Positions 37,548-41,038 of a DNA stretch of 41,038 nucleotides are shown here, one piece after another. Source of the DNA: Candidatus Berkelbacteria bacterium (lineage in GTDB: Bacteria > Patescibacteriota > UBA1384 > 2-12-FULL-50-11); NCBI GenBank assembly GCA_016213365.1, contig JACRAP010000005.1, positions 1 to 41,038 of the forward strand, read 5' to 3'. A program made the position numbers and the translations under genes. Numbering within the stretch: the first letter of the stretch is position 1; the number at the start of each line of letters is the position of its first letter. The notes beneath the pieces were generated by a model. The model was given only the letters and a program-made list of their open reading frames with translations. It was not told where the DNA came from and made no database searches.

Positions 37548-39902
37548 CTACTTTTGAACGTTAACGGTTATTATTTTTTCGCCCACCCCACCCGAATTAT
37601 CAGTTGCAACAACTCGAATTTGTTTAGTACCGTAACTAACGTTCTTTCCCTTACCCCCAGAGCTCCAAGCGTAAACAAAACTACTGACACCGGTATATGT
37701 TTTAATTAGTGCGCCATCGATATACAGTTGCATGCTTGCAATTACGCCCGAGTCGTCAGTTGCGTTAGCGATAATATTTACCCGACCGCTCACGGTTGAG
37801 CCGTCTATCGGGTTGGTTATATTTACTACCGGAGCTATTATATCGGTACTTGAGATTTTGTAGTTTATATATGCTGGATTTGTACTATCGTAGCTAGTGT
37901 TGCTAATGTTGTACGCCTTGAGCTGGATGGCATAATAGCCGGCAGCTAGTTCTGATGATGATGTAACTGTGATGTTTTTTGTTTGGGATTGTCCTGGTGC
38001 AAGATCAAAAGTAGTTGGGCTTAAAGTGAAACCGGATCCTTCGTAGTCTTTATTGCTTTTTATCGCAAAACTTGAGCTAGAGCATAACGAGTTATCTTCG
38101 TTGGTAACTGTTACTGAATAAGTTAACGTATCACCTGCATTTCCCCACTGTTCATATGGTTCTGCTGCAATTTTTGGGTTAGCTTTTTGACATGTCGGGC
38201 CAAGAAATTCTACTTTGACAGTAGCGCTATTATTATCTAACGCTAAAGTAGTAATTCTTATGTTAGTTTTTGGATCGGTAACTGATTTACCAACAGCAAG
38301 CGCAGAGTCACTAAAAGTTGAAGTAGACGGATTTGCGTCGAGTAAATACGAAAATGTTTGTGCGCTATAATCTGGACCAAGGTGAATAGATATTCCGTTA
38401 ACAACAGGAGCAGTTGAACTGTAATTATCTATTACCGACGGACGTCTGTAGTCTAAATAGATATGTTTAGTTGTGTACGAATTAGGATCTCTTAAAATTT
38501 GTAGTGTCTGCGGTTGGTCCGTTTTGAATTCAAGGGGTTTAATTGTGTACTCTCCATTTGTTCCAACTGTCTTTATGTTGGCCGGGGATAAATACCCCAT
38601 AGCGGCTTTTCTGTAAGTGGTAAATTGTCCGTTTTGGCCCATAATATCGAAACTATCGCCGTATTCAGAAAATCCGGAACAGCTATTTTGCTGACTAAAC
38701 GTTGACGGTAATCCATCGAAAGAACAGGTATAAGTTGATGCGTGGTCCGTACCGAGGTTATGTCCCAATTCATGGCCGTAGACCGCAAGCCCGTTCCAAC
38801 CGTTAATCCATACTTGATTTCCTGGCATTTCAGCGATACCCCCAAATCCGCAACCAGAAGTACTTGGGAAAAAGTAAATTTTATGTTGCGCAGAAATATT
38901 ATATCCGGCATTTCTGGCGGCGTTTTCTGCTGCTGATCCCCATTTTTCATAATTATTACCGCAATCACTGTTTGTATTGTTGATTGTTACCCAGCCAGTA
39001 ACGCCGCTACCACCTGGCGCAAAACCAACTTGATTAAAAGACGTCTCTTCGTAATACGCATCAACCGATCTAGGGTTTGTAAACATCTCGGCGTAAACCT
39101 GCTCTTTAGTAACTGGTTGCCTGGTGTCGTTACTGAAATTAAATAGAATTACTACTGCAGTTTTTTCCGAAGTAGCGGCTGAAATTAAGACGTCTTTATC
39201 GCTTTGTTTACTTACTGATGCTGTTTGCGTGTTGTTGCCATGAATATGCCCCGCAGTGGAGGTTGCGATTTTAGATTTAGCGGTAACTTTAATTTGATAC
39301 GGCTGAAATACGATATTTTCCCCCAACTTAACGGCGTTATTGATAGTTACCGTGTCTCCATTTCGAAGTGTTGGCGTTTCAAGTCTATTTGTTGGAAATA
39401 TTTGATAGTCAAAGTCACCGTTTTGAGATCGATTTAAATAATAAAAATCTACGGAATTTATTATGCCACTGTCGCTAAACTTGTGCCCATGGACGTAAGT
39501 TAATTTTCCGGTGATATTATTTGCCCGTTTTTCAGTATATTTTGTTAAATTAGCCGGAACGTTTGCTAATATTTCATCAGGAAGAATGTTTAAATAAAAC
39601 GTAGAATACTGCTGGGCTTCAAGTAATTTTTCTAGATTTTCTTTTCGAGATTTTAAAATTACTTCTAAGTTAGAAAAATCCTTTTGTGACTGTTTTTTAA
39701 TTTTATTCCACTCTCGCGTTATGGAAATGGTTTGTTTTTTGGTTAATTCTGTTAGCGATTCGTTAATAGTTGCCGAGTCTTCGTTGGCCTTAAAAGCGCT
39801 TACCGATAATAGTAACGCAACAATGGCAATAACGGTAAACGAAATTATCGAGCTTCTAAGTACTTTTTTCTTTAATAATTTAAAGTTTATTTTATTAGGC
39901 AT
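37548..39902 (-). CDS. Secreted/anchored metzincin-type (M11/gametolysin-like) metalloprotease with C-terminal Ig-like domains
   Basis: 'VYGHELGHNLGTDHAS' (HExxHxxGxxH), Met-turn-like 'SFDIMGQNG', 'NPIDGSTVSGRVNIIANATDDSGVIASMQLYIDGALI'; N-terminal TM. Confidence 0.85.
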   Translation of the reverse strand: MPNKINFKLLKKKVLRSSIISFTVIAIVALLLSVSAFKANEDSATINESLTELTKKQTISITREWNKIKKQSQKDFSNLEVILKSRKENLEKLLEAQQYSTFYLNILPDEILANVPANLTKYTEKRANNITGKLTYVHGHKFSDSGIINSVDFYYLNRSQNGDFDYQIFPTNRLETPTLRNGDTVTINNAVKLGENIVFQPYQIKVTAKSKIATSTAGHIHGNNTQTASVSKQSDKDVLISAATSEKTAVVILFNFSNDTRQPVTKEQVYAEMFTNPRSVDAYYEETSFNQVGFAPGGSGVTGWVTINNTNSDCGNNYEKWGSAAENAARNAGYNISAQHKIYFFPSTSGCGFGGIAEMPGNQVWINGWNGLAVYGHELGHNLGTDHASTYTCSFDGLPSTFSQQNSCSGFSEYGDSFDIMGQNGQFTTYRKAAMGYLSPANIKTVGTNGEYTIKPLEFKTDQPQTLQILRDPNSYTTKHIYLDYRRPSVIDNYSSTAPVVNGISIHLGPDYSAQTFSYLLDANPSTSTFSDSALAVGKSVTDPKTNIRITTLALDNNSATVKVEFLGPTCQKANPKIAAEPYEQWGNAGDTLTYSVTVTNEDNSLCSSSSFAIKSNKDYEGSGFTLSPTTFDLAPGQSQTKNITVTSSSELAAGYYAIQLKAYNISNTSYDSTNPAYINYKISSTDIIAPVVNITNPIDGSTVSGRVNIIANATDDSGVIASMQLYIDGALIKTYTGVSSFVYAWSSGGKGKNVSYGTKQIRVVATDNSGGVGEKIITVNVQK

Positions 39903-39974: not shown

Positions 39975-40004
39975 TTGACCCCCACTATATTTATTAGGTA
40001 TAAT
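39975..40004 (+). promoter_or_regulatory. rRNA promoter (TTGACC-18-TATAAT)
   Basis: TTGACC 39975-39980, TATAAT 39999-40004, about 385 nt upstream of 16S. Confidence 0.75.
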
Positions 40005-40328
40005 TGCTTATGTAATTTGCTACTTTACAAGTAGGGCTCTTTCTTTGGCCCCAAATCTTAGAAAGAGATAAGTCCAGCGTATTACCAATTTACGTTGGCA
40101 TTACCGCGAGCATTTTGCGGTTACAAGAAAAGCTAGTTAGTGAGCTAGTCTAAAAATTCACTCCCATAACCTTTGTAAGTTATGGTGCCAAACAATTCCA
40201 AAAAACAAAAAATATATGTCAGTGAAAGCGCAAGCTTTCGCTCATTAAGTTTCGTCGGGATCTTTGGAGTCTGTAATAAGTTTACTTATTGCAAACTCGC
40301 GTAATTTGTTCGCAAGAATAAATTACCA

Positions 40329-40411
40329 GAGAGTTTGATCCGAAGTGCGTAGCACGTAGGACAAACTCTCATAAAAGATTCCCGTTGGAATCTTTTATGA
40401 GAGTTTGATCC
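40329..40411 (+). promoter_or_regulatory. 16S leader with direct (A), inverted (B) and native (C) copies of the 16S 5' end; alternative hairpins
   Basis: A GAGAGTTTGATCC 40329-40341; B GGACAAACTCTCATAAAAGATTCC 40359-40382; C GGAATCTTTTATGAGAGTTTGATCC 40387-40411. Confidence 0.85.
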
Positions 40412-41038
40412 TGGCTCAGGATTAACGCTGGCGGCGTGCCTAATACATGCAAGTCGACTGTGAACAGCGCAAGCTGTCGAACAGGGCGAACGGGTGAGTA
40501 ACGCGTAGGAACGTCCTCCGAAGTCTGGGATAACCCGCCGAAAGGCGGAGTAACACCGGATAGCCTTAAAGCAGAAATGGGGATAGCGGTCGTGGATTAG
40601 ATACCCATGATTGTAGAGTTCGTTTAGTGTTGCGCGTACAACTTGCGCATACAAACTGACGAGATACTCGGTATCCCCTTCAAAACTTTGACAAGCACCA
40701 TGCTTGTCTCCCCATTTCTGCTTTAAGTAAAGTTTACGCTTCGGAAGCGGCCTGCGTCCTATCAGCTAGTTGGTGAGGTAATGGCTTACCAAGGCGATGA
40801 CGGGTAACTGGTCTGAGAGGATGATCAGTCACAGTGGGACTGCGACACGGCCCACACTCCTACGGGAGGCAGCAGTAGGGAATCGTCGGCAATGGACGAA
40901 AGTCTGACCGCGCGACGCCGCGTGAAGGAAGAAGGTCTTCGGATTGTAAACTTCTTTTATGAGGGAAGATTATGACGGTACCTCATGAATAAGGGCCTGC
41001 TAACTACGTGCCAGCAGCAGCGGTAATACGTAGGGCCC
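40393..41038 (+). rRNA. 16S ribosomal RNA, 5' part (truncated by window end)
   Basis: AGAGTTTGATCCTGGCTCAG, CTCCTACGGGAGGCAGCAG, GTGCCAGCAGCAGCGGTAATACG. Start estimated by E. coli numbering. Confidence 0.97.
40565..40727 (+). other. Stem-bounded intervening sequence/extended helix in 16S V2
   Basis: CTTAAAGCAGAAATGGGGA (40565-40583) and TCCCCATTTCTGCTTTAAG (40709-40727) are exact reverse complements, enclosing 125 nt of non-canonical sequence. Confidence 0.85.

What the first reader, a model, noticed from the sequence alone, without database searches (positions are those of the whole stretch)
40329..40411. Mutually exclusive hairpins in the 16S leader that mimic and sequester the 5' end of 16S rRNA
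Three related segments lie in series. A (40329-40341, GAGAGTTTGATCC) copies the first conserved nucleotides of 16S. B (40359-40382) is the antisense of that sequence plus 12 nt. C (40387-40411) contains the real 16S start. B-C forms a 24-bp hairpin with one A bulge and a CGTT loop that locks the 16S 5' end; A-B forms a shorter competing stem with an inner GTGC-GTA-GCAC hairpin that frees it. In mature 16S these nucleotides form h1/h2 and the central pseudoknot, so the leader could act as a folding timer, processing signal or decoy. Leader-16S interactions assisting folding are established for E. coli, but I do not recall this decoy/anti-decoy layout. The switch function is inference.
Basis: partly seen in the sequence, partly recalled or inferred. 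Interest (0 to 1): 0.85.

Follow-up and report, generated by a model that had tools for sequence, protein, structure and literature searches.

The report
Leader RNA that rivals 16S start
Just before the 16S ribosomal RNA of this Patescibacterium, the precursor RNA carries an antisense of the 16S start and, further upstream, a copy of that start which can take the antisense away; the antisense half is an oversized form of a helix known from E. coli ribosome assembly, while the copy appears to be specific to this bacterial family and could be an RNA-built release switch.

Summary
A (40329-40341) is a 13-nt copy of the 16S start, B (40359-40382) its antisense, and C (40387-40411) spans the mature 5' end (16S nt 1 at 40393). 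B-C folds at z = -9.9, A-B at z = -6.2. It is not an assembly palindrome: four other genomes of the family, each from a different genus, keep A-B-C; a fifth keeps a weakened form, one lacks it, and one gave no 16S start to test. B-C is not new in kind. It is an enlarged version of the leader/16S helix called h1' or h0 in E. coli (leader nt about -11 to -1 with 16S nt 7-17), which excludes h1 and is thought to be remodelled with the help of RbfA. A-B is the new part: a hairpin with complete two-sided compensation (6 of 6 variable pairs, none broken), found in this family and not convincingly in 39 other Patescibacteria leaders or 20 other bacteria. The A-B and B-C states lie within 3.4 kcal/mol in five of six genomes. 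Folding by transcript length puts A-B first, then B-C as C emerges. Best reading: a leader-encoded strand-exchange partner for h0. The pairing is supported by comparison; the switch function is inferred.

The parts
39975..40004 (+). sigma-70-like promoter of the rRNA leader, TTGACC-18-TATAAT
   Evidence: 11 of 12 consensus positions; a consensus match only, about 1.2 such sites expected in shuffles
40105..40132 (+). 5' arm of the leader-trailer (RNase III type) stalk, GCGAGCATTTTGCGGTTACAAGAAAAGC
   Evidence: homologous segment GCGGTTRCAAGAA pairs with TTCTTGYAACCGC in the trailer of five relatives; trailer absent from this contig, so inferred for the window
40266..40298 (+). second, upstream A-B-like hairpin GGAGTCTG-TAATAAG-TTTA-CTTATTG-CAAACTC
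   Evidence: MFE -13.8, z -4.35; similar second modules upstream in G006 and, by eye, in G002
40329..40341 (+). segment A: copy of the 16S 5' start, 5' arm of the A-B hairpin
   Evidence: conserved in relatives
40342..40358 (+). GAA/GTA internal loop and GTGC-GTA-GCAC stem-loop closing A-B (tandem G-A plus variable stem in relatives)
40359..40382 (+). segment B: antisense of the 16S start; shared strand of the two exclusive helices
40383..40386 (+). CGTT loop of the B-C hairpin
40387..40411 (+). segment C: last 6 leader nt plus the first 19 nt of mature 16S; pairs with B (enlarged h0/h1')
40393..41038 (+). 16S rRNA, cut by the contig end
   Evidence: RF00177 465.5 bits, model positions 1-535

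Best explanation
The element is the pre-16S leader of a Patescibacteria family carrying an enlarged h0 (h1') helix, B-C, plus a leader-encoded competitor strand, A. During transcription A-B forms first. When the 16S 5' end emerges, the inner B-C hairpin zips up and C displaces A from B by branch migration, so 16S nt 1-19 (the 5' strand of h1 and part of the central pseudoknot) are held away from premature pairing. Because A repeats the 16S start, A-B and B-C cost nearly the same, so the reverse exchange (A retaking B) can release C with little energy when r-proteins and RbfA are ready to trap h1/h2. Shown: sequence, conservation, compensatory changes in A-B and in the inner hairpin, near-equal predicted energies, predicted order of folding. 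Inferred: that both states occur in the cell, that A speeds release, and that this sets the timing of pseudoknot formation.
For: A-B-C in five genomes of five genera of the family, degenerate in a sixth. Compensation in A-B: 66 of 66 cells paired, 6 of 6 variable pairs changed on both sides, 0 of 500 shuffles for four of five measures (2 of 500 for the other), slid versions fail; matched arms beat swapped arms, best of 40,320 permutations for the distal stem, 4 of 40,320 for the core arms, best of 720 for the inner hairpin. The two bases of B next to CAAAC follow A (UC/GA, CG/CG, CU/AG, CC/GG) although C stays UCC. Energies of the A-B and B-C states: -39.7/-43.1, -34.8/-37.2, -30.7/-30.5, -32.0/-31.8, -31.4/-33.8. 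B pairs with A and with the C core within 1.0 kcal/mol in five of six. Pair probabilities by length: A-B about 1.0 until C is made, then B-C takes over by about nt +8 (G000, G002, G006). h0 precedent: PMC10250234, PMC3996153, PMC4371863.
Against: Energies are nearest-neighbour predictions without proteins and with errors of several kcal/mol. G005 favours B-C by 8.7 kcal/mol and folds A partly elsewhere. In leader-plus-600-nt folds B-C dominates in three genomes but A-B in G004, so the resting state is not constant. G007 of the same family does without A-B-C. Any strand pairing with B would look like C, so mimicry alone does not prove exchange. The A-B alignment was built by hand with the structure in mind.
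Confidence: 0.5

Rival explanations
1. Only B-C matters (it is the h0 helix, enlarged). A-B is an ordinary leader hairpin, perhaps a protein or RNase site, that resembles C because it also pairs with B or because the region duplicated; no exchange cycle takes place.
For: h0-like hairpins close to the 16S start recur: E. coli 11 bp, Pasteurella 11, Ensifer 12, several Patescibacteria 8-10; pairing near the start exceeds pairing further upstream, Wilcoxon p 0.006 in each of two groups; 19 of 389 phylum genomes match a strict pattern. Extra A-B-like modules upstream in G000 and G006 suggest the hairpin can exist without a neighbouring C.
Against: B is shared, so the two helices cannot coexist; the shared pairs are kept in five genera and the energies are balanced.
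Confidence: 0.33
2. The hairpins are mainly a processing signal: with no RNase E/G in the family, RNase III or RNase J uses the B-C or A-B helix to set the 16S 5' end, which lies inside the B-C helix.
For: RNase E/G absent in 8 of 8 family genomes; RNase III present in 8 of 8 and RNase J matched in 8 of 8; the 24-bp B-C helix spans the mature 5' end.
Against: A normal long leader-trailer stalk is also present in five relatives, so RNase III already has a site; G007 has no such hairpin; in G006 the B-C helix is split by a tandem G-A loop, poor for RNase III.
Confidence: 0.14
3. Assembly artefact or chance palindrome.
For: The contig ends inside the 16S, and palindromes do arise at contig ends.
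Against: Same layout with different sequence and compensatory changes in independently assembled genomes; one relative appears in a GTDB contig of 685 kb.
Confidence: 0.01

Closest known systems
h1' / h0 helix of the E. coli pre-16S leader (Young and Steitz 1978; Dammel and Noller 1993; named h0 in Warner et al. 2023, PMC10250234)
   Same: Leader just upstream of 16S pairs with 16S nt about 7-17, excluding h1 (9-13/21-25); the E. coli rrsH leader fetched here shows the 11-bp helix ATCAAACTTTT/AAGAGTTTGAT.
   Different: Here the helix is 24 bp, runs through the mature 5' end, has a short loop, and its leader strand has a second, competing partner A. E. coli has no significant A copy (7/10, p 0.35).
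U3-like leader sequences proposed for the SSU 5'-end pseudoknot (Dennis, Russell and Moniz de Sa 1997; seen here only as a citation in PMC3608112)
   Same: Same idea, an external sequence holding the 5' pseudoknot strands (from own knowledge; paper not held).
   Different: No copy of the 16S start competing with it is known to me.
Transcriptional riboswitches working by cotranscriptional strand exchange (e.g. B. subtilis yxjA, PMC9756952)
   Same: One strand shared by two exclusive helices, exchanged as RNA emerges.
   Different: No ligand or terminator here; the displaced strand is rRNA itself. Analogy only.

Membership tests
h0 / h1' leader-16S helix | leader immediately upstream pairs with 16S nt about 7-17 | tested here: met
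   B-C; conserved core CAAAC/GUUUG in G000, G002, G004, G005, G006
h0 / h1' leader-16S helix | excludes mature h1 (9-13 with 21-25) | tested here: met
   C contains 16S nt 9-13 GAGUU fully paired in B-C; partner GGCUC present at 21-25
h0 / h1' leader-16S helix | covariation of the helix | tested here: inconclusive
   inner hairpin covaries (best of 720 permutations) but it forms in both states; the core cannot covary because the 16S side is invariant
h0 / h1' leader-16S helix | lies inside a leader-trailer helix | tested here: met
   stalk predicted in five relatives; trailer not in the window's contig
h0 / h1' leader-16S helix | RbfA available to remodel it | tested here: met
   RbfA-like match in 8 of 8 family genomes but weak, 30-42 bits, in G000 31.8, under the cut-off of 34.7
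h0 / h1' leader-16S helix | melts during 30S maturation | not testable with these tools
   needs RNA probing
two-state RNA switch | two mutually exclusive helices each kept by selection | tested here: inconclusive
   A-B supported by compensation; B-C core supported by conservation and the h0 precedent, not by covariation

The most novel reading that the evidence does not exclude
The leader encodes its own release device for h0: a copy of the 16S start that swaps with the real one in a near-isoenergetic three-strand exchange, doing in RNA part of what RbfA does in E. coli, in a lineage whose RbfA is strongly diverged.
Probability: 0.3. Interest if true: 0.8.

Novelty: new variant of a known kind. 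Interest (0 to 1): 0.52.

Why it matters
How and when the 16S 5' end leaves its leader helix to form h1 and the central pseudoknot is an old question in ribosome assembly, with RbfA as the main known helper. A family in which the leader carries a second, equal-energy partner for that helix gives natural variants to test whether strand exchange alone can drive the step, in bacteria reported to have about half the usual set of ribosome biogenesis factors (PMC12641178).

Tried and rejected
Assembly palindrome: rejected, conserved with compensation. E. coli having the full A-B-C layout: considered because AAAGUUUAAUUC upstream resembles the start, rejected (7/10, p 0.35); only B-C is shared. A widespread Patescibacteria feature: rejected for A-B; hairpins with GAGTTTG/CAAACTC arms number 6 in 7 family leaders (0.26 expected), 2 in 39 others (0.81 expected), 0 in 20 outgroup leaders (0.37 expected). 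Loss of RbfA as the reason for A: rejected, RbfA-like genes are present though divergent, also in G007, which lacks A-B-C. Kink-turn reading of the A-B internal loop: considered and dropped, no 3-nt bulge. Fake h1 (A with 16S nt 21-25): appears in short folds of G002 and G006 but has probability 0 in the -115..+600 folds. Automatic alignment of the A-B-C region shifted the B strand in some rows, so the pairs were counted on a hand-built block alignment. The RF00177 whole-genome search found nothing in G000 although the window has the 16S; treated as a miss of that search's first look. The single genome contigs pattern scan gave one locus.

Full report
Observation. A, 40329-40341, is GAGAGTTTGATCC; B, 40359-40382, is its antisense plus 12 nt; C, 40387-40411, holds the 16S start. 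Rfam's bacterial SSU model begins at 40393, so the mature 5' end falls inside the B-C helix: six leader bases and nineteen 16S bases make up C. Alone, the B-C stretch folds at -37.2 kcal/mol (z -9.9) and the A-B stretch at -23.0 kcal/mol (z -6.2); no shuffle of 200 did as well in either case. The wider leader 40300-40450 has z -7.7. The window is a whole contig that ends inside the 16S.

Conservation. Seven other genomes of the family are held; six gave a 16S start. G002, G004, G005 and G006, each a different genus, keep A, B and C in order; G001 keeps a degenerate version; G007 lacks it. G003 gave no match and could not be tested. The sequences differ enough to be informative. The A-B hairpin has the form GUUUG, a bulged A, two variable pairs, usually a tandem G-A loop, then a stem whose sequence changes freely. 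On a hand-built block alignment of six modules, all 66 cells pair; five pairs never vary, and the six that vary all change on both sides; shuffles and slid structures fail. Swapping arms between genomes weakens the hairpin: the true matching is the best of 40,320 permutations for the distal stem, within the best 4 for the core arms, and the best of 720 for the inner hairpin of B-C. Related sequences are not independent and the alignment was made with the structure in view, so these are strong hints, not probabilities. The two bases of B beside CAAAC follow A (UC/GA, CG/CG, CU/AG, CC/GG) and not the constant 16S bases, which shows that A-B is kept for its own sake.

Range. GAGTTTG/CAAACTC hairpins number 6 in 7 family leaders against 0.26 expected, 2 in 39 other Patescibacteria leaders against 0.81, and 0 in 20 leaders of other bacteria against 0.37. 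By contrast, helices between the 16S start and the leader close upstream are widespread: 11 bp in E. coli and Pasteurella, 12 in Ensifer, 8-10 in several Patescibacteria. Pairing potential near the start exceeds that further upstream in both comparison groups, Wilcoxon p 0.006 each. A strict pattern for such a hairpin matched 19 of 389 genomes of the phylum, most with short loops. So B-C belongs to a general class and A does not.

What is known. In E. coli the leader pairs with 16S nt 7-16 (h1'; Young and Steitz 1978, Dammel and Noller 1993, as described in PMC3996153). Warner et al. 2023 name it h0, place it at -11 to -3 with 7-17, find covariation in some clades, and state that h0 melts and 9-13 re-pairs with 21-25 (PMC10250234). 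The mutually exclusive leader structure is thought to block premature formation of the central pseudoknot, with RbfA helping to refold it (PMC4371863; PMC9032327; PMC8201178). B-C has the same position, partners and exclusion of h1. It is larger, and its leader strand has a second partner. Several primary papers on leader-16S contacts are not in the library, so an earlier description of a competitor copy cannot be ruled out.

Mechanism. With either core helix enforced, the two states of the A-to-C region differ by 3.4 kcal/mol (G000), 2.4 (G002), 0.2 (G004), 0.2 (G006) and 2.4 (G001); G005 differs by 8.7. Equilibrium pair probabilities computed at increasing transcript length give A-B near 1 until the 16S start is transcribed and B-C afterwards in G000, G002 and G006, later in G004 and G001; in G005 A is partly in another hairpin. 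These are equilibrium folds at each length, not a kinetic simulation. With 600 nt of 16S, B-C dominates in G002, G005 and G006 and A-B in G004. This fits a near-balanced exchange but not a fixed resting state. I favour a leader-encoded exchange partner for h0 at about 0.5, a plain enlarged h0 with an unrelated neighbouring hairpin at about 0.33, and a processing signal at about 0.14.

Context. Five relatives show a long leader-trailer stalk built on GCGGTTGCAAGAA and TTCTTGCAACCGC; the window has the 5' arm, GCGGTTACAAGAA. RNase III is present and RNase E/G absent in all eight family genomes; RNase J matches in all eight. RbfA-like genes are found in all eight but score low, 30-42 bits, against 43-90 bits in most of the other class members. 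That is suggestive of altered RbfA use, but G007, without A-B-C, has the same kind of RbfA. A promoter-like site lies at 39975-40004.

Noticed in passing
window 40565-40727: Insertion in the V2 (h8) region of the 16S closed by a perfect helix CTTAAAGCAGAAATGGGGA/TCCCCATTTCTGCTTTAAG (MFE -73 kcal/mol); it contains GGATTAGATACCC at 40594, an exact copy of a universal 16S segment (about nt 787-799), a second 16S mimic in the same transcript.
   Followed up: partly
L043 about 1040-1340 (G005 16S): The G005 16S carries a V1 insertion with an apparent GIY-YIG-like reading frame (MKMHYVYLLKSKKNGRLYTGFTDDLKQRLQDHN...) between inverted repeats CCACACCTCT and AGAGGTGTGG (identified by eye, not searched).
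   Followed up: no
L045 about 490-660 (G009): The first 35-40 nt of 16S, TATTTGAGAAGAGTTTGATCCTGGCTCAGGGTGAG, are repeated 149 nt upstream of the real start; duplication or assembly artefact.
   Followed up: no
window 40266-40298; L005 (G006) about -124; L003 (G002) about -130: Second, upstream A-B-like hairpins in the leaders of G000, G006 and, by eye, G002.
   Followed up: partly
relatives G000-G007: RbfA homologues of this family are unusually divergent (30-42 bits against PF02033) compared with most of the class.
   Followed up: partly
window 37548-39902, - strand: 784-aa protein with HELGHNLGTDHA metalloprotease motif next to the rRNA operon (motif seen by eye).
   Followed up: no
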